From assembly GCF_024758705.1 (NCBI RefSeq), contig NZ_CP096971.1, forward strand, positions 1,054,001-1,118,000: 64,000 nucleotides of DNA. The letters run 5' to 3'. The first letter of the stretch is position 1; each line of letters opens with the position of its first letter. The notes below the pieces were generated by a model. That model did not search any database. It worked only from the letters and a program-made list of their open reading frames with translations, and was not told the origin of the DNA. This document shows positions 22,218 through 49,725 of the stretch, piece after piece. This DNA is from Sphingomonas sp. SUN019. GTDB taxonomy: Bacteria > Pseudomonadota > Alphaproteobacteria > Sphingomonadales > Sphingomonadaceae. The position numbers and the translations under genes are program-made.

Positions 22218-22352
22218 CCGTTGTCCGCGCTAACGCCGCAGTCCGGTACGGAAACAGCGCTGGAGACCCAATATTGTAGCCGAGCGGCAGAGGTCGAGAC
22301 GGCCTTTGGCATCGTGCTCGTAGTGCGCGGCGAACTTGGATGGAGAGATCAT

Positions 22353-22499
22353 ATGAAATGGGAATATTTGGCGATCGAAGAGCGGCTCGACTCGGCCAAG
22401 CTGAGCGAGTTGGGTAGTCAGAGCTGGGAGCTAGTGACGGTTGTATCCCCCGGGCATTTCGTGCTGCACTATTTTTTCAAGCGTATGCTGAACGCGTAA
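22353..22499 (+). CDS. 48-aa DUF4177-like small protein
   Basis: ATG preceded by GGAGAG. The sequence follows the pattern of small DUF4177 proteins: an opening MKWEYLAIEE strand, then LSELGSQSWELVTVV, where the ELGxxxWELV motif is diagnostic, then a final strand. Such proteins are short, cytoplasmic and uncharacterised. The open frame extends upstream, but that part lacks a ribosome site and similarity. Confidence 0.55.
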   Translation: MKWEYLAIEERLDSAKLSELGSQSWELVTVVSPGHFVLHYFFKRMLNA

Positions 22500-22686
22500 C
22501 GGCATTGTGCAAGATCACCCTATGGAAAGGGTATCCTCGCACCCGCGGTAGCCTTGCTGATCGGCAAGCTGCCAGCTGTTAGAATTGCCGAGGATCGGCA
22601 TTGGTAGAGCTTGTTGAGCCAAATGTCAGCCTCATGAAGGTCGCCGCCCCTGAACAAGCACACTAGTTTATCCGAAAGGACGATCA

Positions 22687-23097
22687 TTGACTTTCCAAGA
22701 GGAAATGGCCGGGTTCTTTGTCGAATATGTCGCAGCGTTCGCCCGTAACGAGCCCGACGCGCTCAGCGAGCTTTGGGACGCTGTTGGACTGTTCCCATCG
22801 CCAACCGGCAACTTCGCGATGCAACGGGAGGCGTTTCGTGACCACTGCGTGACGTTGATGGATTTCTACCGCGAGCAGGGCATCGTTCGGCCCGTGGGGG
22901 CGCTGCTTGCCGCGAATGAACTCTTCCCGAATGTCGCTCAAGCACGCTTGGCATACCGAATGCTCGGCGAGGGTGATGAACTCGTCGCCGAATGGGAGCA
23001 CGTCTATATCCTGCGCCGTACTGACCGCTGGCGCGTTTCGTTGACGATCGCAGATGGTGAAATGGCAGCGTGGGCCGCCAAAGGCGCGGAACTATAA
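22687..23097 (+). CDS. SnoaL/NTF2-like protein
   Basis: 136 aa from a TTG preceded by AAAGGA six bases upstream. The pattern of an N-terminal helix with EYVAAFARNEPDALSELWD, a core helix and final strands (DELVAEWEHVYILRRTDRWRVSLTIAD) fits an NTF2/SnoaL-like cone fold. No catalytic residues can be assigned. It is the last intact gene of this cargo block before the transfer genes resume. Confidence 0.65.
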   Translation: MTFQEEMAGFFVEYVAAFARNEPDALSELWDAVGLFPSPTGNFAMQREAFRDHCVTLMDFYREQGIVRPVGALLAANELFPNVAQARLAYRMLGEGDELVAEWEHVYILRRTDRWRVSLTIADGEMAAWAAKGAEL

Positions 23098-23099
23098 AC

Positions 23100-23234
23100 T
23101 GCGGCCTGTATTGCGCCAGCCGCCTTCAACTCACTCATGTCGAGAAGCCGGGCGATACGGCGAAGAAGGTGGTCGCGCGGTACAGCCACCTGCGGTTTCT
23201 GCAGCGCCAGAAGGGTCAGAACCCCGACTCATAA
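23100..23234 (+). pseudogene. Possible relic of a tyrosine-recombinase C-terminus
   Basis: A 44-codon open stretch with no start codon, ending at a TAA. Its middle reads DTAKKVVARYSHLRFLQRQ; the RYSHL sequence resembles the segment around the catalytic tyrosine region of phage-type integrases. It is short, lacks the preceding box, and could be chance. If real, it marks an old insertion at the right edge of the cargo block next to copG. Confidence 0.25.
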
Positions 23235-23324
23235 TGTCCGCTCTAAAGATTACCTAACTGCGTCGGCTTTGACCGCCTATCGGTGCTTTCTGAGGTGAGC
23301 TTTCACCCTGACAGACTTTCGTTT

Positions 23325-23750
23325 TCAATCTGGCGCATGCTCTTGTTTCGGCCAGACATCTTCCGGGATCTCGTCCATCAACGTCTTGCCGCTGGCGAAA
23401 CGCCTGCCGAGCGTCTCGACAAAGCCCTCGTATCGTTTGCGCCCCTTAACCTGTGCGGCCGCCTGTTCTTCGTCTGGCAGCGGTGGGGTGACGGACAGCC
23501 AGAACCTCACGAACAGCGTTAGCGCTTCGGTCGTGAGCCCGGTGTTGCGCTCAAGCCGCTGGACCTGACGCGACAAGCGATCAAGCCGCCGGGCGAACGC
23601 CGCCTCCATCCGGTCGGCGCCGTCTGGCGAAAGGTAGGACGCCACGGCAGCCTCCACGATCGCTGAGCGCGAGATGCGGCGGCGGATCGCCAGCTCATCC
23701 ACCTGCTTGGCGAGCGCGGGCGGGAAATAGACGTTGAGCCTGACACGCAT
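23325..23750 (-). CDS. CopG-like ribbon-helix-helix protein upstream of the cargo, paired with traG
   Basis: 141 aa. The N-terminus (MRVRLNVYFPPALAKQVDELAIRR, then SRSAIVEAAVASYL) is a ribbon-helix-helix DNA-binding fold, followed by helices. It lies nine bases after traG on the same strand. Related elements carry this gene between traG and trbB, so it is a member of the transfer module and probably a regulator. Here it is followed by cargo and not by trbB. Confidence 0.85.
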   Translation of the reverse strand: MRVRLNVYFPPALAKQVDELAIRRRISRSAIVEAAVASYLSPDGADRMEAAFARRLDRLSRQVQRLERNTGLTTEALTLFVRFWLSVTPPLPDEEQAAAQVKGRKRYEGFVETLGRRFASGKTLMDEIPEDVWPKQEHAPD

Positions 23751-23759
23751 GATTGTCCC

Positions 23760-25733
23760 CTACAGGTCGATACCGTCGCTCGGATCGAGCGACGCCTGCC
23801 GAGCGAGCCCCTGCATCCGGCGACGCACCGCCGCTTGCCAGGCCGCGTCGTCTTGCTCGTCGTCGACGATCGCGAACTCCTGGGCCGCCGGCGGCGGGGT
23901 CTCGGGCGCGATTGCGACATGCTCAGGCAACTCGGGCTCGCGGCGCAGCCCACCATTGGCCGCGTCCTCCGCGTCACGGACGATGCGCGCGACCTGCTTC
24001 GGATCGGCGGATGCCTGCCGCCCGGTCCAATCGTCGGGCCTGACCTTGGCCGCCTGCGGCGCTGGCGCCCGCGCAATCCGCTCGGACAGGCGGCGATCCT
24101 GGTAGTAGCGAGCCTTCTTCGCGCGGATCGGATGGACGCCCGCCACCATGACGATCTCGTCGTCGGGCGGAAGCTGCATCACCTCGCCGGGAGTGAGAAG
24201 CTGGCGAGCGGTCTCCGACCGCGACACCATCAGGTGCCCGAGCCACGGCGACAGGCGATGCCCGGCATAGTTCTTCATCGCCCGCATCTCGGTGGCGGTG
24301 CCGAGCGCATCCGACACGCGCTTGGCGGTGCGTTCGTCGTTGGTGGCGAAGCTCACGCGGACATGGCAGTTGTCGAGGATCGCGTTGTTCGGGCCGTAAG
24401 CCTTCTCGATCTGGTTGAGCGACTGCGCGATCAGGAATGCCTTGAGGCCGTAGCCCGCCATGAACGCCAGGGCGGATTCGAAGAAGTCGAGCCGGCCGAG
24501 CGCCGGAAACTCGTCGAGCATTAACAGCACGCGATGGCGATTGCCCTTGGGCGTCAGCTCCTCGGTCAGCCGGCGCCCGATCTGGTTGAGAATGAGGCGG
24601 ATCAGCGGCTTGGTGCGCGAGATGTCGCTGGGCGGCACGACCAGATAGAGCGTCGCCGGCCGATCCCCCTCGACCAGATCCGATATGCGCCACTGACATG
24701 CTCGCGTCACCTGCGCCACGACGGGATCGCGGTAGAGGCCGAGGAACGACATGGCGGTGCTCAGAACGCCCGATCGCTCGTTGTCCGACTTGTTCAGCAG
24801 TTCGCGCGCCGCGCTGGCGACAACGAGATGCACCCCGGCATCGCCAAGGTGCGGCGTCGCCATCATCGCGGCCAAGGTCTGCTCGATCGTGCGCCCCGGG
24901 TCTGAGAGGAACCCGGCGACACCGGCTAGGGTCTTATCGGCCTCAGCATAGAGGACGTGAAGGATCGCGCCGACCAGCAGCGAGTGGGAGGTTTTCTCCC
25001 AATGGTTCCGGCGCTCCAGCGACCCTTCGGGATCGACCAGAACGTCGGCAACATTCTGCACGTCGCGGACCTCCCATTGGCCGCGCCGCACCTCCAGCAA
25101 CGGATTGTAGGCGGCCGACTCCGCATTGGTCGGATCGAACAGCAGCACGCGGCCGTGCCGCGCTCGGAAACCGGCGGTCAGCGTCCAGTTCTCGCCCTTG
25201 ATGTCGTGGACGATCGCCGATGCCGGCCAGGTCAGCAGCGACGGCACGACCAGGCCGACGCCCTTGCCCGAACGGGTCGGGGCGAAGCACAGCACATGCT
25301 CGGGGCCGTCGTGACGGAGATAGTTGCGGGCGAGCCTGCCGAGCATGACACCGTTCGGCCCCAGCAATCCGGCCGCGCGCACCTCCCGCTCGGTCGCCCA
25401 GCGTGCCGAGCCGTAGGTCTCGGCGTTCTTCAACTCGCGTGCGCGCCACACCGACATGCCGATGGCGACGGCGATCGACACGAACCCGCCCGACGCGGCG
25501 ATGAACGCGCCGGTCTTAAAGATGTCGGGCGCATAGGCGTCGAAGCTGAACCACCACCAGAAATAGGCCGGCGGCGGATAGATGCGCCACCCGAAAGCCG
25601 CGAACCACGGCGGCCCCAGCTCGGGCTGGTAGGCGAGTGCGGCGGCGGTCCACTGCGTCGCGCCCCACACTCCGGCGAGCACGATCAGGAACACGATGAT
25701 GATCTGGCCCCAAAGTATCTTGGTCGCGGACAC
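23760..25733 (-). CDS. traG: TraG/VirD4-type coupling protein
   Basis: 657 aa. Two N-terminal transmembrane helices (residues 10-32 and 74-96), Walker A in CFAPTRSGKGVGLVVP (residues about 149-164), Walker B in VLLMLDEFPALG, and the TraG C-terminal region (YYQDRRLSERI). The coupling protein brings the relaxase-DNA complex to the Trb channel and energises DNA export. It follows the relaxase gene by 14 bp. Length and motifs are intact. Confidence 0.94.
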   Translation of the reverse strand: MSATKILWGQIIIVFLIVLAGVWGATQWTAAALAYQPELGPPWFAAFGWRIYPPPAYFWWWFSFDAYAPDIFKTGAFIAASGGFVSIAVAIGMSVWRARELKNAETYGSARWATEREVRAAGLLGPNGVMLGRLARNYLRHDGPEHVLCFAPTRSGKGVGLVVPSLLTWPASAIVHDIKGENWTLTAGFRARHGRVLLFDPTNAESAAYNPLLEVRRGQWEVRDVQNVADVLVDPEGSLERRNHWEKTSHSLLVGAILHVLYAEADKTLAGVAGFLSDPGRTIEQTLAAMMATPHLGDAGVHLVVASAARELLNKSDNERSGVLSTAMSFLGLYRDPVVAQVTRACQWRISDLVEGDRPATLYLVVPPSDISRTKPLIRLILNQIGRRLTEELTPKGNRHRVLLMLDEFPALGRLDFFESALAFMAGYGLKAFLIAQSLNQIEKAYGPNNAILDNCHVRVSFATNDERTAKRVSDALGTATEMRAMKNYAGHRLSPWLGHLMVSRSETARQLLTPGEVMQLPPDDEIVMVAGVHPIRAKKARYYQDRRLSERIARAPAPQAAKVRPDDWTGRQASADPKQVARIVRDAEDAANGGLRREPELPEHVAIAPETPPPAAQEFAIVDDEQDDAAWQAAVRRRMQGLARQASLDPSDGIDL

Positions 25734-25747
25734 GGAGTTCTCCTGAT

Positions 25748-27508
25748 TCAGATGCCGAGGCCGCGCTTCCGGCCGAGCGTCCAGTCGATGCCGCCGCCGG
25801 CGCGGATGATTCCGGACACCTGACGGCCGAGCTGCTGTTCGAGGGTGCTGGCCCAGGGCACGAGCCGGAAGCCGAGGCCGTCGTCGATCATGGCGAAGCG
25901 GCCGGATGCGAGCGCAAGACGCTGGCGGACGATGCCGGCGATCTTCTCGCCCGACGCGGCGGGGCGGTAGGCAAGCCCGGTCTCGCCCGCGATCTTCGCG
26001 CCTACGGAGTCCAACTCGCGCTTCCGCAGCGTGTCGAGCATTCCGCTCTCGAACACCGCGCGGTCGCCGAAGCGACGCGCCAATCCCTCGCGGACGAGAT
26101 GATCGGTGCGCGCGTCCATCGCTTTGCGCACCTCCGCGCCGAATCCGCCGTCCGCGACATCGGCGCCGCGCTCGATCAGACGATGGTCGAGCCAGGTCGC
26201 GCCGGGCGCCTTGACCTGTGCAGCAAGGTCGAGGTCCGACCGCGTGGCGAGGATCAGCGTCGGCTTTTCCTCGCCGGGTCGGCCGACGCCGCGCAGTTCG
26301 ACGATGCCGCCGAGCTTGGGGCTATGCTCCAGCGCCTCGATGCCGGGCAGCCGGACATGATGTGTGCGGCCATCCGTTCCGTCGATAACGGCATAGGCCG
26401 TGCCGGTCAGTTCGTCGTGCAATCCCTTGTCGATCAGCCGGCCAGCGATCGGCTTCTCGGGCGGGCCGCTGACAACGGCGTAGCTGTCGAGCGGCCGGGT
26501 CTGTCCGCGATCCTTGAGCGCCGCGCCGATCGTGCGGATAATGTCGCCGCGGGTGCCCAGCTCGCGCAGCTTCGCCGCCGCGCCCTCAGCCACCGCCCAT
26601 TGGCCCGGATCGCCCTCGGCCGCGAGCCCCATCGTCTCCAGATGCTGCAACCGGCCGATCATCAAGCGGCGGAGGCGCGGATCGTCCGGGCCGGGCCGCT
26701 CGGGGCGCAGGTCGATCACGCCCAGCTCGTCGGCGGAGCGCTGGATCTCGGAATCGAGCCGGGTCCAGCGCTCGGCCGTCACCTCGCGGTCGAGCGCGCG
26801 CTGCACCTCATGCTCCGGCTTCGGCCCTAGTTCGGCGAAGGCCAGGTCTTGCGCGCGCGAGCGGAGATTGTGGCTGATGTAATCGCGGGAGATGACGAGA
26901 TCGGTGCCCTGATCGGTAACGCCGCGCACGAGCAGATGGACGTGCGGATTGTCGGTGTTCCAATGATCGACCGCGACCCAATCGAGCCGCGTCCCCAGGT
27001 CCGCCTCCATCTGACGCATGAGGTCGCGCGTGTATTCGCGCAGGTCGGTCAGCTCGGCGGCGTCTTCGGGCGACACGATGACCCTGAAATGGTGCCGGTC
27101 ATCCTTGCACCGCTCGGTGAAACCGCGATCGTCGGCGTTGTCGCCGGCCGCGTCGAACATCCGCGTCGGCGAGCCGTCGCGGGTGACGCCTTCGCGCTTC
27201 AAATAGCCGACGTGCGCGGACAGCGGCGCCGAGCGCCAGCCACCCCGGCTGCGGGTGGTCACGGGCAGCATCTTGACCATGACGCGGCGGCCCGAGCCGA
27301 ACAGGCGGCTGCGAGCGAACGCGGTGCGTCCCCGGCCGAAGGTCGATCGCGCGCCCCGGCGCGCGCCGCTGGCGCTGCCACGCCGGCCGCCGCTATGGAT
27401 CGCGGCGACGCGGAGCACTTCGGCGACTAGGCCGCGGGCATTGCGGCCTTGCGCCTTGCTACGCTTGGCCTTGCCCGGCCGGACGCGGAACTCGCTGTCC
27501 TCGCTCAC
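25748..27508 (-). CDS. Relaxase (RlxS type, DUF3363)
   Basis: 586 aa. After a basic N-terminal region come the metal-binding histidines of a MOBP-like relaxase (DDRHHFRVIVSPED, residues 137-149; DNPHVHLLVRG, H189 and H191), followed by a DUF3363 region. A catalytic tyrosine is likely in the N-terminal HVGYLKREG segment (Y102). The enzyme nicks oriT and stays bound to the 5' end of the transferred strand. Its start lies about 155 bp from the candidate nic site at 27669. Confidence 0.9.
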   Translation of the reverse strand: MSEDSEFRVRPGKAKRSKAQGRNARGLVAEVLRVAAIHSGGRRGSASGARRGARSTFGRGRTAFARSRLFGSGRRVMVKMLPVTTRSRGGWRSAPLSAHVGYLKREGVTRDGSPTRMFDAAGDNADDRGFTERCKDDRHHFRVIVSPEDAAELTDLREYTRDLMRQMEADLGTRLDWVAVDHWNTDNPHVHLLVRGVTDQGTDLVISRDYISHNLRSRAQDLAFAELGPKPEHEVQRALDREVTAERWTRLDSEIQRSADELGVIDLRPERPGPDDPRLRRLMIGRLQHLETMGLAAEGDPGQWAVAEGAAAKLRELGTRGDIIRTIGAALKDRGQTRPLDSYAVVSGPPEKPIAGRLIDKGLHDELTGTAYAVIDGTDGRTHHVRLPGIEALEHSPKLGGIVELRGVGRPGEEKPTLILATRSDLDLAAQVKAPGATWLDHRLIERGADVADGGFGAEVRKAMDARTDHLVREGLARRFGDRAVFESGMLDTLRKRELDSVGAKIAGETGLAYRPAASGEKIAGIVRQRLALASGRFAMIDDGLGFRLVPWASTLEQQLGRQVSGIIRAGGGIDWTLGRKRGLGI

Positions 27509-39615: not shown

Positions 39616-39891
<276 letters not shown>

Positions 39892-40467: not shown

Positions 40468-40788
40468 TCAGCGCTTCTTGGCCGGGGCGGGCCGCGACCA
40501 GATCAGCGCGTATTCGCCGACTGTCTCGGTCTCGACCAGCATCGCGTAGACCGGAGATGAGAAGCTCGGATCGTCCAGCTTGACCGACACATAGTCGCGC
40601 TGTTCGCGGCTCGTCTTCTTCCAGCCCGCGCCGAACTCGAAGGTGCCGACGGTGACGCGATAGTCGGGCGCCTTGTCGCTGTCCTTGTCGATCGGGCGGA
40701 TGGTCGTCTTGAGGTTGAGGAAGGCAGTCTTGATGGTGCCGGTGAAGTTGCCGTTGGCGGCGAGGGTGAAGGTGCCGATGATCGCCAT
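40468..40788 (-). CDS. DUF736 protein, copy 2
   Basis: 106 aa: MAIIGTFTLAANGNFTGTIKT, DSDKAPDYRVTVGTFEFGAGWKKTS, REQRDYVSVKLDDPSFSSPVYAML. Same family as 28660-28992 and close in size. ATG 40788 is used, the frame extends without support upstream. A shared leader motif lies 90-111 bp upstream. The gene is in the predicted leading region on the template-compatible strand. Confidence 0.9.
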   Translation of the reverse strand: MAIIGTFTLAANGNFTGTIKTAFLNLKTTIRPIDKDSDKAPDYRVTVGTFEFGAGWKKTSREQRDYVSVKLDDPSFSSPVYAMLVETETVGEYALIWSRPAPAKKR

Positions 40789-41256
40789 GTCGAAGTTCCT
40801 TTCGTTCTCGGGCCACGACCACCGCGGCCTCGATGGCGATCGGTGAAGCGGGGACGATCGGACGCGCACCGCTCGCGGCCGGAACGCAGTGGAGGACGGC
40901 GGCGCGCGGCTTTTTTGCTTCGCGATGCAAAGCCGAAGGCGGCGGAAAAAAGCCGCGCGCTGCCGTTGCGCCAGGCCGGTTTGAGGCGAAGCTGGCCCCG
41001 GTTAGACCAAGCCAATCGAGAGGCCGCGTGGTGGCGCGCGAGGAAGGACAGCGACATAGATGCAGCATCGACGCCACGGCCGGCAACGGCAGGTTCTTCC
41101 ATCGGCGCATCCTGCCGGGCGCAACGGCGAGCTAACGCCAGAGATTGACGGACAGCGCCAAGGCGATGACGCGGAGCATAGTTGGCCTGACGGTGTCGGT
41201 GCGACGGGAAGTGTCGATGCCTGCGGGGCTGGCCGACACAGAGGAGGTCTAGCTGG
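40789..41256. other. Gap between DUF736 copy 2 and YnfA
   Basis: Apart from the leader annotated at 40878-40960 the rest of this 468-bp interval shows no convincing gene. The last 15 bases hold the AGGAGG ribosome site of YnfA. Minus-strand frames here have no ribosome site and lack family features. Confidence 0.45.
40878..40960. promoter_or_regulatory. Structured leader of DUF736 copy 2 with shared 22-bp motif
   Basis: The 22-bp motif at 40878-40899 matches 43888-43909 (ParB leader) in 21 of 22 bases. Next to it are perfect 15-bp inverted repeats, GCGCGCGGCTTTTTT at 40902-40916 and its complement at 40946-40960, with a 29-nt loop. Both motifs lie about 90-170 bp upstream of the start codon. 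A single-strand promoter of the Frpo type, or an RNA leader, would fit; this is inference. Confidence 0.55.
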
Positions 41257-41580
41257 ATGACGACGCCGTTCGGCTATGTCGCCGCTGCGGTCGCGGAGAT
41301 CACCGGGTGTTTCGCGTTCTGGGCGTGGCTCCGGTCCGGCAAGTCGATGATCTGGATCGTGCCGGGCCTCACCTCGCTGGCGGCGTTCGCGTGTCTGCTG
41401 ACGCTGGTGGACAGCGCAGCGGCGGGCCGTGCCTACGCCGCCTATGGCGGCGTATATGTCGCGCCGCTGATCGGGCTGTGGTCGGTCGAGAGGCCGCGCG
41501 CCGATCGCTGGGATGCAATTGGCGCCGCGGTCTGCCTGCTCGGCGCGAACGTGATCCTGATCGGGCTGCGCCCCGCCTGA
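41257..41580 (+). CDS. YnfA/UPF0060 membrane protein
   Basis: 107 aa with four short helices, including [38 protein letters not shown] and [20 protein letters not shown], which match the UPF0060 (YnfA) family of small multidrug-resistance-like inner-membrane proteins. AGGAGG precedes the ATG. Why it sits in the leading region is unclear. Substrate unknown. Confidence 0.92.
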
Positions 41581-41589
41581 CCCTTTCGC

Positions 41590-41669
41590 GCGAGCCGGGC
41601 CGTGGCCCGGCGAGCGCGCCGTTTCGCTCCATGACGATCGGCCGCGCGCCGTCCGGGCGCGCGGCCGAT
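41590..41669. repeat. Double hairpin, copy 2, downstream of the ParB gene
   Basis: Hairpin 1: GCCGGGCC (41594-41601) with GGCCCGGC (41604-41611), again flanked by GCGCGA and GAGCGC; hairpin 2: a 14-bp perfect stem at 41637-41650 and 41656-41669. Layout equals copy 1 at 32084-32158, and it too begins 50-130 bp beyond the stop of a minus-strand gene. Confidence 0.75.
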
Positions 41670-41722
41670 TTATGTCGGGGTGAAGGAACCGGGGCCGCTC
41701 GCGCGACCCCGGCCCGATGCCG

Positions 41723-43789
41723 TTACTCGGCGGCAACCGCGTAAGACACCTCGCCGTCTTCCGCTTTGGAAGGGGGTGCCTCCGCGTCGGACGGCTGCAC
41801 CTCGGCTCCCGTGCCCTCGGTTTCCACCACCTCGGCCTGCTCCGGCCCCGGCGTCCGCAGCGCGGCGGGAAGCCAGCCGGTTCCGGCCAGAAGCTGCTCG
41901 GCAGCCTCCGCCATATCCGGCTTCTTCATATCCGCGATGCGGCGGGCGGCATCCTCGGACACGCCTTCGGTCACAGCCTCTACGATATGCGCCTTGGTGA
42001 CGCGGCCAAGGTAGCTGTCCACCGTCGGCGTCCAGTCCTTCGCCACGTCCAGCGCCAACGCGGTCGCCAGCCGGTCGGCGGTCTGCAACGCCCTTGCCTT
42101 GCGGTCCCACGGCAGCCGCAGCGCATTGACGGTGCGGGAAGCGCAATGCGCGAGCAACGCCGTCCGCCGCTCTTCGTCCAGCCCGACGACGAAGCCCCAC
42201 AGGTCCGCCACGTCACGCGGCATCCGCTCGGCCCACGCCTCATGCGCCTCGCTCGCCCGCGCCGCCAGCGCCGTGTCGTCGATCCCGTCCGCATGACTCC
42301 CCAAGGGGGTCACGGTCGGGCGAACCTCAAGGCAACCGGCTTCCGCGTAGCTGTAGAACAGTTGCGCCGTCAGCGTGTGGGTCAGGGCAATCATAGCCAG
42401 GTCGGGCCGCTCGCCAAGCGCCACACGCAAGGCCAGCGTTCGGTAGGCGGACAGGTCGCGGGTGAGGCTGTCGGAAATAGGCTTGCCCGGTTCCTCGTCC
42501 TCCTCCCCGATCTCCTGCACGTCCTCGTCGCCCTCCTCGGGCTGCTCGTCCTCGCCGGTCATTACATCGCCCTCGGCTCCCGGCTCGGGCTGCGGGTCCG
42601 CCAGCGCCTCGTCCCCGGGCCGAACGAACCCACGCTCGATCCGCGCCGCACCGTCGTGATTGAGGATGACGAACACGCCGCCGTTGGCGATCACCAACGG
42701 GTCGTAGGCGGAACGCTTGGCGCTGATGGCATCAATCTCGGCGTCCAGCGCCGCGACCTTAGCCGCCACGTCCTCGGGCATTTCGTCCAGCGAGTCGTAG
42801 CCCTCGACAAGCTGGTCATACTCGACCGACGCCGCCTCAAACCGCGCCTCGTCTTCATCGGACAGCGCGACCGGCTGCGGGTAGAAGCGCCGGAAGCCGT
42901 AGGCGTGGGGATAGTCGATATGCGCCTCGGCCCATTTCCAGCCCTCGCCCTTCACCTCGCCCGCGATCTCGCGCAACTTCTCCACGGCGAGCATATCGAG
43001 CAAGCCCGCATCCTCGAAGAACCCGCCGCTATCGTCGCTGAACAGGTCGCGGATGATGGTGCCGCCCGCCTCGACATACGCGTCGATGCCGACAAACGCC
43101 GCGCGGCGATCACTGGCGGGGACGTTGCCCGCCGTCATGTCCCGGCGGATGATCCACGGTTCGCGGTTGTAATGCAGGTTCTCGAACACCTGCTCCTGCC
43201 GGGCGTGGTCCTCGGCGATGGCGAACGCCATAAGCTGATCGAGCGTCAGGCCGTTCTCACGATAGACCTGCAACAGCTTGGGCGAAACCGCGCCAAGGCG
43301 AAGCCGCTGCTTCACCACATTGACCGACACGCCGAACCGCGCGCCGATCTCCTCCGCGCCCCAACCCTTGTTCTCGGACAACTCGCGGAACCGCTCGAAC
43401 TGGTCTGCCGGGTGCATCGCCTCGCGGGTGACGTTCTCGTCCAGGCTGATCTCCGCCGGGTCGTTCTCGGTGTCGAGATAGCAGCGGACCGGCTGCGTTT
43501 TCTTGATCTGCTTGCGCTTGGCGCGAAGCAACTGCGCCAGCCTGCGGCCCTCGCCAGCGGTAACGAGATAGCAGCCGGTCGGGCTGCCGTCCTCGCGGAC
43601 CTCCGGCTCGATCACAAGGTTCTGGATCATGCCCTTGTGCTGGATGCTCCCCGCCAGCGCCTCGATGGTCGCCTCGCTGTGCGGCACCTTGCGCGCGTTC
43701 TTGGGGGACTTTTTAAGCTTGTTCAGCGGCACGAAGATTTCGACGCCCGACACAGGCTCAACGGCTGCGGTTTGAATGGCAGCGTTCAT
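41723..43789 (-). CDS. Large ParB/RepB/Spo0J-family protein
   Basis: 688 aa from ATG 43789 (GGAGAAG upstream). The N-terminal ParB part is complete: VPLNKLKKSPKNARKV, LVTAGEGRRLAQLLRAKRK, ENVTREAMHPADQFERFREL and the HTH (GAEEIGARFGVSVNVVKQRLRLG). The remaining ~450 residues are a long helical and acidic region. No parA is in the window, so classical partition is doubtful; long ParB-like proteins of this type occur in leading regions of conjugative elements as maintenance or anti-defence factors. Confidence 0.88.
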   Translation of the reverse strand: MNAAIQTAAVEPVSGVEIFVPLNKLKKSPKNARKVPHSEATIEALAGSIQHKGMIQNLVIEPEVREDGSPTGCYLVTAGEGRRLAQLLRAKRKQIKKTQPVRCYLDTENDPAEISLDENVTREAMHPADQFERFRELSENKGWGAEEIGARFGVSVNVVKQRLRLGAVSPKLLQVYRENGLTLDQLMAFAIAEDHARQEQVFENLHYNREPWIIRRDMTAGNVPASDRRAAFVGIDAYVEAGGTIIRDLFSDDSGGFFEDAGLLDMLAVEKLREIAGEVKGEGWKWAEAHIDYPHAYGFRRFYPQPVALSDEDEARFEAASVEYDQLVEGYDSLDEMPEDVAAKVAALDAEIDAISAKRSAYDPLVIANGGVFVILNHDGAARIERGFVRPGDEALADPQPEPGAEGDVMTGEDEQPEEGDEDVQEIGEEDEEPGKPISDSLTRDLSAYRTLALRVALGERPDLAMIALTHTLTAQLFYSYAEAGCLEVRPTVTPLGSHADGIDDTALAARASEAHEAWAERMPRDVADLWGFVVGLDEERRTALLAHCASRTVNALRLPWDRKARALQTADRLATALALDVAKDWTPTVDSYLGRVTKAHIVEAVTEGVSEDAARRIADMKKPDMAEAAEQLLAGTGWLPAALRTPGPEQAEVVETEGTGAEVQPSDAEAPPSKAEDGEVSYAVAAE

Positions 43790-44637
43790 CACACTTCTCC
43801 TTCTAAAACCACACACCCCCCGGAATGGGGTGGGCGGCGAAAGAGCGACCGGCAGGCCCGCCGACGGAGCCGGGCAGCACCCAAAGGGCCGGAACGAAGT
43901 GGAGGACGGGCAACGCCCGTTGCGGCCCGGCGCGGCGGGCCTAAAGGAAGCGACCGCCCACCCCAATGACGGGGAGTGCAACGACCAGACGCGATCGGGA
44001 CGGCGCAGCCCTGGCCCGATCTCCGCAGCTTACAAGGACAGCGAACCCGCTGGACGGGTTCACCGATCAATGCGCCGAAGGCGCCTCAACGAACAACGGC
44101 GCTCTCGCAACGGCGCGACGCGGCGGACGGCGTGGCGGCGAGCCGAGCGGAGACCAAGGGTGTTGCGCCGCAGACGCAGCCCCGCCGGTCGCAGCGAGCG
44201 CGAGACCGCCGCCCGTCCGTAAGGAGAGAGGCGAGAGCGCCAGCGGGTCAGCACGAAAACGCCGCGCCCTCAGGAGCGCGCAGCGCGGGAAAGAGCGCGT
44301 CCTTAGAGCCCCCCGCTCATTTTCCGGCCGCCTGCTCCCCTTGCGCCAGCGATCGTCACCGATAGGCTGAGACGCCGCAGGCGGCTCGGTGGAGCAAGCC
44401 CGCGCAGACGGGATTGCGGAGTAGAGCGCGGTGCGGGCTTGCCCGCAGGTGCCAACTCCACCAAGCATTAATTCGAAAGCCATATTTCGCGTGTCGGGCG
44501 AGACGATTGCAAGTCCGCCGAACCAACGCGGGGCGCAAGGGAGAACGCCCGAAAAGGCGTGTTACCGACATGCAACACGAAAAATAAAACTTGACTCGAT
44601 AGCACCCCCTCCTGGACGCCGGGTGTCCAGGCCGCCT
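43790..44637. other. Gap upstream of the ParB and methyltransferase genes
   Basis: The first 150 bp are the ParB leader with the shared 22-bp motif at 43888-43909. From 44040 to 44350 the DNA is GC-rich with many short repeats; after about 44460 it turns visibly AT-richer toward the methyltransferase start. Several overlapping frames are open but none has a ribosome site or family. It is a likely junction between two modules. Confidence 0.5.
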
Positions 44638-45975
44638 ATGCGGCGAAAAAGGGGTCTGGATCGAGTGACAACTGCAACCTTCATCGACCTATTTGCAGGA
44701 TGTGGAGGCTTGTCACTTGGACTCAATCATGCGGGCTGGACATCTAGGTTCGCGGTAGAGGCTCATCCTGATGCCTTCGCTACCTACAAGTCGAACCTTC
44801 TCCACGGTCAAGGCACAATTCACGACTGGCCCGACTGGCTACCTCAGCAGCCGTGGGCAGCACAGGAGGTCTTGACCCGTTTCTCGACGCAGCTTTCGAG
44901 CCTCAGCGGACACGTCGACCTGATCGCAGGGGGGCCGCCGTGCCAAGGCTTCAGCATGAACGGCCTCCGAAGGCCCGATGATCCACGAAGCCAGATGGTC
45001 GATGTCTACCTCCGCTATGTCGAGGCCGTGCGGCCACGCTTGGTTCTATTGGAAAACGTCGTGGGCTTCCAGTCAATGAAGCACCGCACGGGCGGGACGT
45101 ACAGTGAGTTTGCCCGGCGCCAGCTGGAATCGTTGGGCTACCAGACATGGGCAGAAATCCTGCGCGCGTCGGATTGGGGCGTGCCCCAGCGCCGTCCCCG
45201 GTTTGTGTTGATCGCTGCGCCACGAGGAAGCCTGCCGGGGATAGACCCGATGGAGCGGCTGCGCGTCGCACGAAAGGCTTTCCTCGCGAAGCGCGGGCTA
45301 GGTCCGGGGCATACGAGCGCACTCGATGCGATTTCCGACCTTGACGAAGGCGGCACGGAAACAGCGCCCGACGCTGAATGGGGCCACTTGGGTTTCAAGT
45401 CACTTCGCCGTTCGGTTGATGCGCTCTCGCCTTATCAACGGCTCATGAGGGAAGATGCTCCGCTTGCCCCAAGCGACCTGCGCCTGCCCCGGCACAGCGC
45501 CGTTGCAACGAGCCGCATGCGGGACATCCTTGATAGTTGCGAACGGGGAGTGTGCCTACGGCCGAGCGATCGCGAGCGACTGGGCATCCGCAAGCGATCG
45601 ACTACTCCGCTCGACCCGGCGGCTACATCCCCGACAATTAGCACGCTGCCTGACGACCTCATCCACTACGCCCAACCTCGCGCCATGACCGTGCGCGAAC
45701 ACGCACGGCTGCAATCATTCCCGGATTGGTTTTCGTTCAAGGGGCCATACACGACGGGCGGGAGTCGCAGAAAGGACGCTTGCCCACGGTTCACGCAGGT
45801 CGGCAACGCAGTGCCGCCGTTGTTGGCGGAAGCGCTCGGCGAGACCCTACGCGGTCTCTTGGCGGTCCAATGTGGTGACGAGGGCGGTCATCTCGCGAAG
45901 GGCGTCGATGTGAGCAGCAAAGTCGCGGCGGATATCAGCGAAGTCGTTGATGCTGATCTCGTTGCTGCCTTGTAA
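44638..45975 (+). CDS. C5 cytosine DNA methyltransferase
   Basis: 445 aa with all core motifs: I FIDLFAGCGGLSLGL (about 15-29), IV GGPPCQGFS with catalytic Cys102, VI LLENVVGF (Glu139), VIII VPQRRPRFVLIAA, IX REHARLQSFPDWF and X FTQVGNAVPPLLAEALG. ATG 44638 is used; a GTG at 44665 is possible. The last 30 or so residues run over the 3' end of the convergent receiver gene (129-bp overlap). It stands with Vsr and two signalling-type proteins and is probably the modification partner. Recognition sequence unknown. Confidence 0.93.
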   Translation: MRRKRGLDRVTTATFIDLFAGCGGLSLGLNHAGWTSRFAVEAHPDAFATYKSNLLHGQGTIHDWPDWLPQQPWAAQEVLTRFSTQLSSLSGHVDLIAGGPPCQGFSMNGLRRPDDPRSQMVDVYLRYVEAVRPRLVLLENVVGFQSMKHRTGGTYSEFARRQLESLGYQTWAEILRASDWGVPQRRPRFVLIAAPRGSLPGIDPMERLRVARKAFLAKRGLGPGHTSALDAISDLDEGGTETAPDAEWGHLGFKSLRRSVDALSPYQRLMREDAPLAPSDLRLPRHSAVATSRMRDILDSCERGVCLRPSDRERLGIRKRSTTPLDPAATSPTISTLPDDLIHYAQPRAMTVREHARLQSFPDWFSFKGPYTTGGSRRKDACPRFTQVGNAVPPLLAEALGETLRGLLAVQCGDEGGHLAKGVDVSSKVAADISEVVDADLVAAL

Positions 45976-46800
45976 AACCCAACCGGTATCGCCTTTGACC
46001 TCCATGACGTGCCCAAGCACGTTGCGTCGGCCCAAGACCTTTGGATCATAGTTGGCGCTGGCCTTTCGGAGCTCACGCAATCGCTCGACTCCCTGATCAT
46101 CTAGCCCGAAGGCGGCGCCTGCGCCGGCGACTATCTTGGTCAGTCGCCGAAAGTGCATGAAAAGCTTTGCGCTATCGACCGCGCGGGTGGCCATCCGTTC
46201 TGGCAGGCCGACCTTCTGCGCTCGCTCATACTTGCCCTTGGTCTCATCCAAGTCTTTCAGGACATTGGCGTCTAGATCGTCAATTTTGCTGGCGCAGTCG
46301 TCGTGGCGGGCGTTCATCGAAATCACTGCCGCTTTCATGATGTCATCGCATTCGGCCACGACCCTCATGGCGAGGCCACGCATCCCAGAGAGCCGGTTGA
46401 GTGCCTGAGCCGTTTGGTCAATCAGCTCGCCGGCACGGCGAATAAAATTGTCGCGGACGCTGCAATAGACACCCTCGACATTCTTGTCGGCGATCAAGCG
46501 CCGGAGCTCCGCATCCCCGGCACTTCCCGAATAGAAAAGGATCGTCGTCGATGGGAAGAGCGACCGCACCTTAGGCGCGAGGTCGTCACCGTTTTCATCC
46601 TTCAGCCGGTAGTCAAGTAGGATGAGGTCATAGCGATGGAAGAGTTGGTTCTCGCGCGCGTGTGCCTCGATGTCCGCGCCGTTCGGTATCGTGGCAATCC
46701 GCGCAATAAACCCTGCTTCCTGAACTCGACGCCTAAGCTCAGCTTCCTCTTGGGCGCTATAGGAATCCTCGATCCAGAGGATACCAAGATCAAGGTTCAT
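45847..46800 (-). CDS. Receiver-domain protein without DNA-binding domain
   Basis: 317 aa. Residues 1-125 form a receiver-like fold: acidic pair E11/D12 (LWIEDS), phospho-acceptor D63 (DLILLDYRLKDENGDD), Ser91 (LFYSGS). The conserved Lys after strand 5 is missing (VEGVYCSVRDN). Residues 130-317 are helical and of unknown family, with no HTH. The start overlaps the stop of the GHKL gene by four bases, so both are made together. Likely the partner of the GHKL protein; whether it is phosphorylated is open. Confidence 0.8.
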   Translation of the reverse strand: MNLDLGILWIEDSYSAQEEAELRRRVQEAGFIARIATIPNGADIEAHARENQLFHRYDLILLDYRLKDENGDDLAPKVRSLFPSTTILFYSGSAGDAELRRLIADKNVEGVYCSVRDNFIRRAGELIDQTAQALNRLSGMRGLAMRVVAECDDIMKAAVISMNARHDDCASKIDDLDANVLKDLDETKGKYERAQKVGLPERMATRAVDSAKLFMHFRRLTKIVAGAGAAFGLDDQGVERLRELRKASANYDPKVLGRRNVLGHVMEVKGDTGWVLQGSNEISINDFADIRRDFAAHIDALREMTALVTTLDRQETA

Positions 46801-49127
46801 TCTTTGCTCCCCGGCATTACAATCTCAAAATCGGCGCGCGTGCCGTCCCCTACGAGCTGGATCGAGCCATCCATGCTATCGAGAATCTGCCGGACGCTAT
46901 AGAGGCCCAAACCGGTTCCCGCGCTTGAACCTGTATATCCGCGCTCGAAAATTTTTGACGGATCGATGCGGCGTGGGTCGATGCCTACGCCGTCGTCGGT
47001 CACTTTGATGACGATGGCGTTCTGGCCTTTTTTCGAAACTTTGAACTCGACCTTGCTGGCCTTTGCCTTGCGGGCATTGTCCATGAGATTGTCGACAAAG
47101 ACCGCCATATCGACGGGTGAGAACTCGCGCTCGAGCGTGAGGTCGGGCGATGACGTGAACGTGGCGCTCGGCATTCCGGGAACGCCAGCGAGGCGGACAT
47201 CGAAATATTCGGCCAGGAATCGAAGAATGTCCCCGTTGACCTTGTCGGTTTCAAGGTCGACGCGGATGTTTGGGGCGAACGACAAAACCGTTCGAAGACG
47301 GTCGCCTGATAGGCTCGCGCCCGCGATCGACGCGGAGACCCTGCGCGCAGACTGGCGGATGCTCGCGAGCAAGTCTTCAAAATCGTCCGCATCGTGCAAT
47401 CCTTCGGGCATAACGGCGGCGTCGAGGACATTCCGGGCCTCGAAGGCCGCGTTGGCGATTGCGGATCGAACGTGTCCAAGGTGGATGGTCGCTTGGTGCA
47501 TTAAGAGCTGGATACGCTCAACGTCCACGTCCTGACTGCTGCCAAGGAAGGCTGCCTGTTGTTCAAGCGCCGCAATCCTCGCATCGGCACGAGCGCGCTC
47601 CTCCATCGCCTGCGACGCGACCGCAACAGCTTCCGCGCGCGATGCCTTTAGCTCCGCGATCCTGCGCCGTGCGTCCTCGACTTGCCCGAGAAGCGAAGCA
47701 TCCCCCCGGCTTTCGGCGAGGTGTGACATTGCCTTGAGAGCGTCGTCCGTGATCTGATCCGGATCGTCAGCGACCCGGACAATTTCGTCATCGTAGTAGA
47801 CGACCTCGATGTCCTTGTACCTAGCAAGCGAGCCCACGATGCCGAGGATACGCTCCCGCGCCAGATCGGTCTCGAGACCTTCCGGCGTATCACGATCCTG
47901 ATCGCGCTTGTCCTGCCAGTTTACGCCGACGACATAACGCTCCAGGCGAAAAATCATGTGGCGTCGAATGGCTTCGTAAAGCGCGCGAGAACGCGCGTCT
48001 TCGACCAACCCGGCGTCACGGCTGGAAACCTCGCGGAACATCTTTGGCCGGGCGGTTACGTCGACCCGTCCAATGATGTCGCGAGTGCCCAAGTATCTCG
48101 ACTGCCCCTGCTGCTTCCTGCGGTTCAGTCCGAGCGTGTCATCGAACTCGTCGCCGATCGGTGAAATACGAAAGCCATTAAGGAACAAGAATACGCTACC
48201 GAACTCCACCGAGCGTAGGCCCATGCGCGACGTGAATGTATGCTTCGCCGAGCGGTTTAGGAAATAGATTTGCCCGTCGACACGCGCACCCTCCAATTCA
48301 TCGTATGGCGAAGTCTCGCGTATTGCGTATATCTTGCGACCGCGGTCGAAGAGTGTCGTGTCGATCTTGCCGTTTTCAATTGAGACGTCGATGCGGCTGG
48401 TCTTTTCACGGAGAACATCGGCGATCTCGTTGCCAACCGGCCCATCGACCCCCTCGATCATCTCGTCAGTTCCGTCGAGGAACCAAGTCGAGACTGGGAC
48501 ATGACTCGTCGTCCCGAAGGGATCGATAAGCTTGGCTAGGTCCCGGCGCAGCCGGCTTACCGTCGATGTGTCCCAATCCTGCCGGGTGTCTTTGATTACC
48601 AACACTGTCCCGTGATCACCGGGGGGTTTGGCATTCGCAATCCCGGGAAATCGCGTAGCGGTCCCTAGCTGGACGCCCACGGTCTGGAATTCCTCCGTGC
48701 TGTCGTGCTCGAAGAGCGTCCAGTCGATGTCCAATTTGACGATCGACTTGGCACCATCTGCTCGGCTGTAAAGCGAGAGATGTTCGCCAAGCGTGTCGCA
48801 CGCGAAGCGCCCAATCCCTTTGCTACCCGCGTACTGACCCGCTGGCCTGATCTTGTCCCTATAGTCGTCAGCGCTGGCCAACGCTTTTTCTGAATAGGCG
48901 ACAAACAGCCACTTGCCGCGAATATCAGCCGCGGACATTCCACGACCATCGTCGACGATCGTTATCGACCGCTCATCGGGATCAAACTCGATATCTACCC
49001 TTGTTGCTCCGGCGTCGAACGAGTTTTTGACGAGTTCGAATATCGCGACGAACTCGTTGGTCACCAGATCGCGACCGATGATGTCCTTGAGGTGTGAGCT
49101 AACCCGGAAAGATTCTTGCGTTGTCAT
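46797..49127 (-). CDS. Protein with two GHKL ATPase domains (Hsp90/MutL-like plus kinase-like)
   Basis: 776 aa. N-terminal GHKL: ELVKNSFDAG (residues 31-40), IVDDGRGM (57-64), GSKGIGRF (101-108), as in Hsp90, MutL and MORC ATPases. A middle region has a coiled-coil (about 455-530). The C-terminal GHKL resembles histidine kinases: DNLMDNARKA (679-688), VTDDGVGI (709-716), GTGLGLY (737-743). A helix with histidines (LLMHQATIHLGHVRSA) before it is a possible H-box. ATG 49127 is used. The gene is divergent to vsr and coupled to the receiver gene. Enzyme activity, kinase or switch, cannot be decided. Confidence 0.82.
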   Translation of the reverse strand: MTTQESFRVSSHLKDIIGRDLVTNEFVAIFELVKNSFDAGATRVDIEFDPDERSITIVDDGRGMSAADIRGKWLFVAYSEKALASADDYRDKIRPAGQYAGSKGIGRFACDTLGEHLSLYSRADGAKSIVKLDIDWTLFEHDSTEEFQTVGVQLGTATRFPGIANAKPPGDHGTVLVIKDTRQDWDTSTVSRLRRDLAKLIDPFGTTSHVPVSTWFLDGTDEMIEGVDGPVGNEIADVLREKTSRIDVSIENGKIDTTLFDRGRKIYAIRETSPYDELEGARVDGQIYFLNRSAKHTFTSRMGLRSVEFGSVFLFLNGFRISPIGDEFDDTLGLNRRKQQGQSRYLGTRDIIGRVDVTARPKMFREVSSRDAGLVEDARSRALYEAIRRHMIFRLERYVVGVNWQDKRDQDRDTPEGLETDLARERILGIVGSLARYKDIEVVYYDDEIVRVADDPDQITDDALKAMSHLAESRGDASLLGQVEDARRRIAELKASRAEAVAVASQAMEERARADARIAALEQQAAFLGSSQDVDVERIQLLMHQATIHLGHVRSAIANAAFEARNVLDAAVMPEGLHDADDFEDLLASIRQSARRVSASIAGASLSGDRLRTVLSFAPNIRVDLETDKVNGDILRFLAEYFDVRLAGVPGMPSATFTSSPDLTLEREFSPVDMAVFVDNLMDNARKAKASKVEFKVSKKGQNAIVIKVTDDGVGIDPRRIDPSKIFERGYTGSSAGTGLGLYSVRQILDSMDGSIQLVGDGTRADFEIVMPGSKE

Positions 49128-49269
49128 CTGGCAGCGCACCTTAGCCACAGGCGCGCGCGAGACAATGGTGAGTCGAGAGCGAGGTCTCCGGCATTCGCTA
49201 TCAGACACTCGACCCGCACGATTTGATGCCTATCTGAGCTTGCAAAGCTAGCCAGGCCGGAGCTCGGAT

Positions 49270-49725
49270 TTGACAGATTTCATGACAGCAGAGGAGCGCT
49301 CGATCCGGATGTCGCGCATCAGGTCACGCGACACTAAGCCAGAAATCGTGCTACGGCGCACGCTCCACCGCCTCGGCCTGCGATTTCGATTGGGAGGCGC
49401 CGATCTTCCAGGCCGCCCGGATATGGTGTTCCCGAAGCACCGGGCGGCGGTCTTCGTGCATGGGTGCTTCTGGCACCGGCATGACGGGTGCCGCGTGGCG
49501 TCCACGCCAAAATCCAATGCCGAATTCTGGGCAAGGAAATTCGAGCGCAATGTCGCCCGCGACCAGAAGGCTACCGGCGACCTCAAAGCACTCGGCTGGA
49601 AGGTGGTCGTGGCCTGGGAGTGCGAGCTAGGCTCAAAAGAGCGATTGGCCTTGACGACGGAAAGGGTAAAGCGGGAAATTACCGCTTACGCGAAGGCGAT
49701 GGCCGTGCCCCGTCCGGTGAGCTGA
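49270..49725 (+). CDS. vsr: Very short patch repair (Vsr) endonuclease
   Basis: 151 aa from a TTG with GGAG seven bases upstream (an ATG at 49282 lacks a site). Motifs: RMSRIRSRDTKPEIVLRRTLHRLGLRFR, GRPDMVFPKHRAAVFVHGCFWHRHDGC with the catalytic Asp51 and the His-rich metal site, and GWKVVVAWECEL. Vsr nicks beside T:G mismatches caused by deamination of 5-methylcytosine, so it is the expected companion of the methyltransferase at 44638. It shares the 142-bp divergent promoter region with the GHKL gene. Confidence 0.92.
   Translation: MTDFMTAEERSIRMSRIRSRDTKPEIVLRRTLHRLGLRFRLGGADLPGRPDMVFPKHRAAVFVHGCFWHRHDGCRVASTPKSNAEFWARKFERNVARDQKATGDLKALGWKVVVAWECELGSKERLALTTERVKREITAYAKAMAVPRPVS

What the first reader, a model, noticed from the sequence alone, without database searches (positions are those of the whole stretch)
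44638..49725. Candidate defence module: C5 methyltransferase, receiver protein, double-GHKL ATPase and Vsr
Four genes stand together at the end of the element, flanked by a gene-poor gap on each side. Seen: an intact C5 methyltransferase, a Vsr endonuclease, and between them a coupled pair (ATGA) of a receiver-fold protein and a 776-aa protein with an Hsp90/MutL-like GHKL domain and a kinase-like GHKL domain. Known: methyltransferase with Vsr is a standard modification/repair pair, and GHKL ATPases of the MORC/MutL type occur in restriction-like clusters. Inference: no conventional restriction enzyme is present, so the GHKL protein with its receiver partner may sense foreign or unmodified DNA and act as the effector. 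I do not recognise this exact four-gene set as a named system.
Basis: partly seen in the sequence, partly recalled or inferred. Interest (0 to 1): 0.85.

Follow-up and report, generated by a model that had tools for sequence, protein, structure and literature searches.

The report
Methylase-linked kinase with RNase-like receiver
A mobile four-gene bacterial module, probably a defence system, pairs a DNA-marking enzyme with a MutL-like histidine kinase and a receiver protein whose tail looks like an RNA-cutting toxin, suggesting a signalling relay that may trigger RNA destruction when foreign DNA is sensed.

Summary
In detail: window 44638-49725 carries an intact C5 methyltransferase, a receiver protein coupled by ATGA to a 776-aa double-GHKL protein, and Vsr, beside a conjugative element. 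It is a real unit: in 12 of 12 relative loci the kinase-receiver pair lies with a C5 methyltransferase (8 of 12 tail-to-tail, overlapping the receiver gene); Vsr is optional (6 of 12). The class is partly in print: PMC8011034 (2021) describes Response_reg_2/HEF_HK two-component-like pairs linked to C5 methylases and Vsr. The window's pair fails both Pfam models and is a sister variant. The receiver protein's helical second domain carries RNx[LFI][GAS]H, the HEPN ribonuclease signature, in 225 of 225 relatives listed; one of 120 scanned hits a Pfam HEPN model (E 4e-4, under cut-off). Best reading: methylation marks self, the GHKL kinase senses foreign or unmarked DNA, the receiver-HEPN protein is a switchable RNase. 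HEPN identity is moderate, not proven; sensing, phosphotransfer and defence are inferred. My ten paper searches showed no receiver-HEPN effector.

The parts
44638..45975 (+). C5 cytosine DNA methyltransferase (start ATG 44638 or GTG 44665)
   Evidence: PF00145 E 5.3e-49, TIGR00675 132.5 bits over cut-off; motifs I, IV, VI, VIII, X present
45847..46800 (-). Receiver (REC) + HEPN-like protein, 317 aa; proposed effector
46456..46800 (-). REC domain, residues 1-115 (acid pair E11/D12, phospho-Asp D63, S91; canonical Lys absent)
45850..46449 (-). All-helical C-terminal domain (with a short beta hairpin), residues 118-317, HEPN-like
   Evidence: secondary structure; PF18730 hit in relative P0337; profile comparison
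46009..46026 (-). RNVLGH, residues 259-264: R-N-x3-H, the HEPN-type catalytic signature
   Evidence: RNx[LFI][GAS]H in 225 of 225 receiver proteins listed, own included; R, N, H columns invariant in A4 (62) and A7 (58)
45847..45975 (.). 129-bp convergent overlap of MTase and receiver genes; MTase stop TAA is antisense to receiver codon Leu276 (TTA)
   Evidence: convergent overlap in 8 of 12 relative loci; stop at codon 276 in 7 of the 8 readable cases (window + 6 of 7 loci)
46797..49127 (-). Double-GHKL histidine-kinase-like protein, 776 aa, ATGA-coupled to the receiver gene
   Evidence: PF13589 + PF02518; alignment A2; AF2 model
48528..49070 (-). N-terminal MutL/MORC-type GHKL ATPase (E31, N35, D38, DDGxGM, GSKGIGRFA)
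47280..47522 (-). DHp-like helical hairpin, residues 536-616, with invariant H544, H549, H552
   Evidence: HQAxIHxGH in 119 of 120 relatives
46812..47270 (-). C-terminal histidine-kinase catalytic (HATPase_c) domain, residues 620-772, N, G1, F, G2 boxes present
   Evidence: Foldseek match to the histidine kinase 4kp4
49128..49281 (.). Divergent intergenic region between the kinase-receiver operon and vsr (presumed promoters)
   Evidence: coordinates; promoters not scanned or mapped
49282..49725 (+). Vsr very-short-patch repair endonuclease (alternative start TTG 49270)
   Evidence: TIGR00632 141 bits over cut-off; PF03852 E 8e-30; found in 6 of 12 relative loci

Best explanation
A mobile, methylation-gated defence module in which a two-component-like pair replaces the restriction enzyme. 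The C5 methyltransferase marks host DNA; Vsr, where present, mends the T:G mismatches that 5mC deamination leaves. The double-GHKL protein is the sensor: its MutL/MORC-type N-terminal ATPase closes on DNA or a DNA-bound complex (foreign or unmethylated DNA, or loss of the methylase), and its C-terminal histidine-kinase core passes the signal to the receiver domain of the partner (phosphate from one of H544/H549/H552 to D63, or a direct contact). The receiver then releases the C-terminal HEPN-like domain, probably as a dimeric metal-independent RNase that cuts RNA and stops growth (abortive infection). Shown here: gene set, its conservation, motifs of the methylase and both ATPases, receiver fold, conserved RN-x3-H in a helical domain. 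Inferred: HEPN identity (moderate), phosphotransfer, sensed signal, RNase activity, phage defence.
For: C5 MTase in the cluster and kinase gene adjacent in 12 of 12 loci; in the L006, L008 and L009 genomes it is the only C5 MTase found. Both ATP sites conserved: N-terminal ELVKN-type motif 120 of 120, GxKGIGRF 120 of 120, C-terminal N box 113 of 120, G2 118 of 120, HQAxIHxGH 119 of 120, window's own included. Model with MutL, MLH1, Hsp90 and MORC2 matches and the 4kp4 histidine kinase. Receiver fold, D63 in 62 of 62. C-terminal domain helical with RNx[LFI][GAS]H in 225 of 225 listed; R141, G142, D152, E267 and R291 also invariant at down to 23% identity. PF18730 HEPN_Cthe2314 hits P0337 residues 195-297, motif at 249, E 4.2e-4. 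Profile score against HEPN_RiboL-PSP (16 proteins of 20 loci used) 20.0, reached by 0 of 60 column permutations (max 14.7), reversed profile 13.5, motif in register; a 10-sequence subset gives 17.5, also 0 of 60. No DNA-binding output domain matched in the window's receiver protein. Sporadic: 3 of 385 class genomes; lower GC beside conjugation genes.
Against: HEPN support is partial: of 120 members scanned one HEPN hit is listed, under its cut-off (only the first 25 families of 60 and of 47 are shown, so single hits with E above about 0.07 may be hidden). hhalign's own probability against RiboL-PSP is 1.7%. No signal against Ymh (22 and 16 of 60 permutations score as high, reversed scores higher) or three weak Cthe2314-like proteins, none over that family's cut-off. 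The PDB profile search with the C-terminal alignment found no HEPN. Structure searches were filled by the receiver domain, so the helical domain's fold was not tested. The receiver lacks the usual Lys after strand 5 (canonical position recalled), and the kinase matches no DHp model and lacks the usual His-acidic pair, so classical phosphotransfer is uncertain. The kinase model is of low overall confidence (pTM 0.47). No phage, RNA or methylation data for it in what I read.
Confidence: 0.5

Rival explanations
1. Regulatory two-component system: the pair senses an intracellular cue and controls expression or activity of the linked methylase/R-M genes, as PMC8011034 speculates; the receiver's helical tail is a regulatory or binding domain.
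For: Parent class described so in PMC8011034. Kinase boxes and receiver Asp conserved.
Against: No DNA-binding output domain matched in the window's receiver protein; the conserved tail residues include R-N-x3-H, E and R, a catalytic-looking set; among the four genes no better effector candidate is seen.
Confidence: 0.2
2. The GHKL protein itself is the restriction effector, as in HgiDII/BbrUII-type restriction enzymes or paraMORC systems, with Vsr or DNA looping doing the cutting and the receiver as accessory.
For: Its N-terminal part (residues 43-229 of the 803-aa frame scanned, about 16-202 of the 776-aa protein) hits NF050001 BbrUII/HgiDII restriction enzyme at E 3e-25, and PADLOC REase_II PDLC03419 at E 3.9e-16; GHKL-linked R-M systems in PMC2292703.
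Against: Score 88.8 against a cut-off of 550 and only the ATPase part matches; beyond it the model shows transducer-like strands, coiled coil, helical hairpin and kinase core; Vsr not found in 6 of 12 loci. Other nucleases near those loci were not searched for systematically.
Confidence: 0.15
3. Orphan methylase plus Vsr as an ordinary modification/repair pair, with an unrelated signalling pair as neighbour.
For: MTase with Vsr is a common pair (established knowledge).
Against: The fixed partners are MTase, kinase and receiver, 12 of 12, with a 3'-overlap of MTase and receiver genes in 8 of 12; Vsr is the optional one.
Confidence: 0.05
4. Addiction module: the interlocked methylase acts as an antidote and the receiver-HEPN protein as a post-segregational killer that keeps the conjugative element, phage defence being secondary.
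For: Tail-to-tail overlap that binds methylase and receiver genes physically; location beside a conjugative element.
Against: Not distinguishable from defence by sequence; a clamp plus kinase looks elaborate for a plain addiction pair (inference).
Confidence: 0.1

Closest known systems
Response_reg_2 (PF19192) / HEF_HK (PF19191) two-component-like pairs, PMC8011034 (2021; abstract, introduction, the four Results sections and Discussion read; Methods not)
   Same: Adjacent receiver-like and double-HATPase (HATPase_c_3 + HATPase_c) genes, with C5 methylase nearby, often with Vsr; soluble; linked to R-M systems; Sphingomonas among the Vsr-bearing genera
   Different: Window kinase gives no HEF_HK match at E 0.1; receiver 18.4 bits, under the 27-bit cut-off of PF19192; the ten PF19192 loci collected here have open frames of 547-817 aa and 9 of 10 lack RNx3H; the sections read name no effector domain
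HEPN ribonucleases (PMC3710099; passages), e.g. Cthe_2314-like and RiboL-PSP families, CARF-HEPN Csm6/Csx1 (PMC11229360; passages)
   Same: Helical domain with conserved R-N-x3-H; a sensor domain fused to the RNase, as CARF is in Csm6
   Different: Sensor is a receiver domain beside a GHKL histidine kinase; homology at family level is weak and not over any cut-off
paraMORC/GHKL R-M systems (PMC2292703; passages)
   Same: MutL-like GHKL ATPase in a mobile cluster with cytosine methylase and Vsr
   Different: No helicase among the four genes; C-terminal histidine kinase and a separate receiver partner (term counts for receiver and response regulator 0 in that paper)
VcSduA, a GHKL-Shedu defence protein (PMC12137116; passages)
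   Same: N-terminal GHKL ATPase in a protein shown to protect against phage, ATPase residue needed
   Different: VcSduA carries its own nuclease domain (DUF4263); the window protein carries a kinase core and acts, in my reading, through a partner
BbrUII/HgiDII family restriction enzymes (NCBIfam NF050001)
   Same: N-terminal GHKL region, E 3e-25; recalled to pair with C5 methylases
   Different: Only the N-terminal ATPase part matches; score far under the equivalog cut-off; the rest of the protein is not covered
MutL-VSP repair (MutL, Vsr, Dcm; recalled)
   Same: GHKL clamp, Vsr nuclease and C5 methylase act in one pathway
   Different: Dedicated mobile set with kinase core and receiver-HEPN-like protein; Vsr not found in half of the loci

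Membership tests
Response_reg_2/HEF_HK two-component-like system | Receiver protein passes PF19192 | tested here: not met
   18.4 bits, cut-off 27; relatives matching at loose thresholds: 17 of 30 at E 1, 15 of 62 at E 10, 9 of 58 at E 1
Response_reg_2/HEF_HK two-component-like system | Kinase protein carries HEF_HK (PF19191) | tested here: not met
   No PF19191 match at E 0.1 or better
Response_reg_2/HEF_HK two-component-like system | HATPase_c_3 + HATPase_c protein beside the receiver gene, near C5 methylase | tested here: met
HEPN ribonuclease superfamily | R-x4-6-H motif with a polar residue after R, conserved | tested here: met
   RNx[LFI][GAS]H in 225 of 225 receiver proteins listed by two searches
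HEPN ribonuclease superfamily | Scores over a curated HEPN family cut-off | tested here: not met
   Of 120 members scanned one listed HEPN hit: P0337 to PF18730, 20.8 bits, cut-off 27.1
HEPN ribonuclease superfamily | HEPN four/five-helix fold | tested here: inconclusive
HEPN ribonuclease superfamily | RNase activity | not testable with these tools
   needs an assay
Two-component system | Histidine-kinase catalytic domain with N, G1, F and G2 boxes | tested here: met
   PF02518 over cut-off; boxes present
Two-component system | Receiver with phospho-Asp and acid pair | tested here: met
   D63 62 of 62, E/D11 62 of 62, D12 61 of 62 in A4; the canonical Lys is missing by eye in A1
Two-component system | DHp domain with an identified phospho-acceptor His | tested here: inconclusive
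   Helical hairpin with invariant H544, H549, H552; no DHp family matched at E 0.1
paraMORC/MutL GHKL group | N-terminal GHKL ATPase motifs with S5-like transducer | tested here: met
   Motifs conserved; MutL, MLH1 and MORC2 structure matches at low query-normalised TM (0.21-0.23); which paraMORC family was not tested
BbrUII/HgiDII restriction enzyme | Passes NF050001 over its length | tested here: not met
   88.8 bits, cut-off 550, profile positions 12-188 of 659 only
Vsr endonuclease | Passes TIGR00632 | tested here: met
   141.2 bits, cut-off 97.85
C5 cytosine DNA methyltransferase | Passes TIGR00675 with catalytic PCQ motif | tested here: met
   132.5 bits, cut-off 100.65; motif IV GGPPCQGFS
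Named defence system in PADLOC-DB 2.0.0 | Receiver and GHKL proteins match system-specific models | tested here: not met
   Receiver: 0 of 30 in A1, own included, and none; GHKL only partial hits in its two ATPase regions

The most novel reading that the evidence does not exclude
A restriction-modification-like immune system whose effector is a receiver-HEPN ribonuclease switched on by a soluble histidine kinase that carries its own MutL/MORC-type DNA clamp: two-component phosphorelay used to trigger RNA cleavage upon sensing unmethylated DNA, with methylase and RNase genes interlocked by a conserved tail-to-tail overlap.
Probability: 0.4. Interest if true: 0.82.

Novelty: new variant of a known kind. 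Interest (0 to 1): 0.62.

Why it matters
If true, two-component signalling, known for gene regulation, would also serve as an immune trigger, and a described but unexplained class (C5 methylase, often Vsr, GHKL kinase, receiver) would gain an effector and a testable mechanism. It names residues (E31, H544/H549/H552, D63, R259, H264) whose changes should separate sensing, relay and killing. It would also link MutL/MORC clamps, proposed to respond to DNA methylation in eukaryotes (PMC2292703, passages), to a bacterial system that might report methylation state to an RNase.

Tried and rejected
GHKL protein as nuclease: no nuclease domain by Pfam and none recognised in the model; dropped as first choice. 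Vsr as effector: not found in 6 of 12 loci. Filing under Response_reg_2/HEF_HK: both models not met. Filing under HgiDII/BbrUII: only the ATPase part matches. Plasmid records: no match to the receiver protein; GHKL hits in 102 records, none covering 80%; the 30 rows shown are under 29% identity and cover at most 56%. Kinase profile A2 in the phylum: 2 of 249 genomes at E 1e-30, the window's own and G585, which matches only positions 4-385 in an 833-aa frame; whether a receiver or methylase lies beside it was not examined. Right flank of the module in the genus: long matches in 3 of 60 other genomes, starting at the thioesterase gene, did not fix the element's boundary.

HEPN support tried and weak or absent: PDB profile search (best hit E 0.23, not HEPN); hhalign against three Cthe2314-like proteins; hhalign against five Ymh proteins. 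A first hhalign run used wrongly extracted minus-strand proteins and was replaced, where 4 of the 20 RiboL-PSP loci were left out (three by hand as cut or with a stop, one by the script). Foldseek, VIA and BFVD lists for the receiver protein show no HEPN among the rows displayed; this says nothing about the helical domain. NCBIfam on 62 relatives gave cas_csm6 (a CARF-HEPN family) for 2 members at best E 0.016, matched region not shown; not used as evidence. The A4 search over 99 genomes of the order gave 41 with a match, but all rows except the window's own end by profile position 134 and are read as ordinary receiver domains. DUF4145 and ApeA sets were fetched but not compared.

Papers: ten searches. 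Seven papers were opened: PMC8011034 in named sections, PMC13092281 in passages and figure legends, the other five (PMC3710099, PMC2292703, PMC12137116, PMC12839542, PMC11229360) in passages. None of what I saw reports a receiver-HEPN effector; listed papers that hold both terms but were not opened (for example PMC11090510, PMC7159879, PMC6563490) are not covered. PMC13092281 lists HATPase and REC among abbreviations of predicted, unvalidated systems (Fig. 6F legend); I cannot tell whether it is this family.
Full report
What is there. Kinase and receiver genes share ATGA (46797-46800). The stretch has 57-63% GC per kb against 63-71% at 37.5-44.5 kb and 50-56 kb; the DNA at 36-37.5 kb is low too, 57-61% (which covers 36-56 kb only). 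To its left lie conjugation genes: relaxase 25748-27508, coupling protein 23760-25733, a T2SSE-type ATPase (TrbB-like, recalled) 15499-16752, a TraG-P-loop ATPase 12412-15024, DUF736 40468-40869 and a ParB-like protein at 41723-43981 whose Pfam hits fall under cut-off. The host is an unnamed 3.8-Mb single-contig genome.

Is it a unit? A profile of 30 receiver relatives (A1) found 12 loci in GTDB genomes. The kinase gene is adjacent to the receiver gene in 12 of 12; in L013 the receiver gene is split by an insertion and in L012 the kinase gene matches in two frames. A C5 methylase is tail-to-tail with and overlaps the receiver gene in 8 of 12 (L005, L006, L007, L012-L016), lies beside the kinase gene in L010 and L011, and about 12.3 kb away in L008 and L009, past Vsr, a large protein (DndH-like at its C-terminal end in L008) and further genes; in the L006, L008 and L009 genomes it is the only C5 methylase found. 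Vsr is seen in 6 of 12: L006-L009, L013, L014 (some loci have short flanks). So the fixed set is methylase + kinase + receiver; Vsr is optional. The family is sporadic: 3 of 385 genomes of the class, the window's own included and one of the others a distant, partial match; 1 of 99 of the order full-length, the window's own.

The overlap. In the window and six loci (L005, L006, L007, L014, L015, L016) the methylase stop is the antisense of the receiver's Leu276 codon, TTA or CTA; in L012 it falls at codon 285; L013 was not examined because its receiver gene is split. This shared, presumably inherited interlock would keep methylase and receiver genes together. That it matters for function is inference.

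The kinase. The 776-aa protein has HATPase_c_3 and HATPase_c. The AlphaFold model (pLDDT 72, pTM 0.47, so only domain-level reading) shows a GHKL head, a beta transducer-like region, helices, long helices about 461-527, a helical hairpin 536-571/580-616 and a kinase catalytic domain 620-772. Foldseek matches include MutL, MLH1, MORC2 and Hsp90 and the 4kp4 histidine kinase, at low query-normalised TM (0.17-0.26), as expected for single domains of a long model. Both ATP sites look intact: among 120 proteins, own included, the N-terminal ELVKN-type motif 120, GxKGIGRF 120, C-terminal N box 113, G2 118 and HQAxIHxGH 119. No nuclease domain was recognised.

How strong is HEPN? For: relative P0337 hits HEPN_Cthe2314 over residues 195-297, with the motif at 249, E 4.2e-4; with 120 proteins scanned about 0.05 such hits are expected by chance. 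The C-terminal profile scores 20.0 against HEPN_RiboL-PSP (16 proteins of 20 loci) with the motifs in register, against 13.5 for the reversed profile and at most 14.7 in 60 column permutations. Against: one listed HEPN hit in 120 members (lists cut at 25 families), under the cut-off; hhalign gives the RiboL-PSP alignment only 1.7% probability; Ymh and a small, weak Cthe2314-like set give nothing; the PDB profile search finds no HEPN. I put HEPN identity at about 0.65.

Mechanism. Established knowledge of the parts (C5 methylation as self-mark, MutL-type clamps closing on DNA, kinase to receiver relay, HEPN RNases as suicide effectors of R-M systems as argued in PMC3710099) suggests one chain: unmarked or foreign DNA closes the GHKL clamp, the kinase signals to the receiver, and the receiver-HEPN RNase stops growth. 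Only the gene set, conservation, motifs and domain folds are shown; sensing, relay, RNase action and defence are inferred. The overall chain gets 0.5.

What is known. PMC8011034 (2021; abstract, introduction, the four Results sections and Discussion read) reports 644 regions with 91.6% linkage of Response_reg_2 receivers and GHKL proteins, overrepresented R-M domains with a dominant presence of C5 methylases, and Vsr in 20 genera including Sphingomonas; it proposes a two-component-like system tied to R-M, and the sections read name no effector domain. The window's pair fails both Pfam models from that work. PF19192 loci collected here (10 of 398 genomes of the phylum) sit in open frames of 547-817 aa and 9 of 10 lack RNx3H. 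So the window is a sister variant of a described class, with a receiver-HEPN-like protein in place of the Response_reg_2 protein. PADLOC has no match for the receiver (0 of 30). Within the ten paper searches made I saw no description of a receiver-HEPN effector; subscription papers and preprints are mostly not held, and not every listed paper was opened.

Verdict. Observation confirmed; interpretation partly supported; class already described, effector reading new as far as searched. Interest 0.62, novelty: new variant of a known kind.

Noticed in passing
window 12412-27508 and 40468-43981: Conjugative element genes (relaxase with DUF3363, TraG coupling protein, T2SSE-type and TraG-P-loop ATPases, DUF736, ParB-like protein) to the left of the module; no integrase was looked for.
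   Followed up: partly
window 39616-39876: An 86-aa fragment matching only the C-terminal end of AcrB-type efflux pumps (profile 960-1019 of 1021), beside a cation efflux gene and a MerR-looking regulator (by eye): remains of an efflux cluster.
   Followed up: no
L008 and L009 (Pseudomonas), L116: A larger version of the cluster in L008/L116: C5 methylase, 715-aa and 460-aa unknown proteins, an 1830-aa protein with a DndH-like C-terminal ATPase, Vsr, kinase, receiver; L009 has the same layout by frames.
   Followed up: partly
L013 8566-10711: The receiver gene is split by a stretch of about 1.2 kb with a transposase-looking frame (by eye); kinase and methylase genes stay open.
   Followed up: no
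L012 7681-9992: The kinase gene matches in two frames that meet near residue 50, a possible frameshift.
   Followed up: no
P0327 (relative of the receiver family): A 436-aa protein joins a HATPase_c kinase domain directly to the receiver-HEPN-like protein, a natural fusion or a frame artefact of the pair.
   Followed up: no
L019 and about 13 proteins such as P0270, P0318, P0344: A distant receiver group (about 23-27% identity) reads RNxLAH; in L019 it keeps the kinase and a convergent, overlapping C5 methylase.
   Followed up: partly
L010 3424-4263: A DUF4145 protein (a HEPN-related family, recalled) lies a few kb from the module.
   Followed up: no
own genome G000:C1:300492-300839, outside the window: The same genome carries a Hypoth_Ymh protein (HEPN-type per PMC3710099) elsewhere.
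   Followed up: no
L073 (G585): A phylum genome has a protein matching the GHKL half only (profile 4-385, 833-aa frame); its neighbours were not examined.
   Followed up: no
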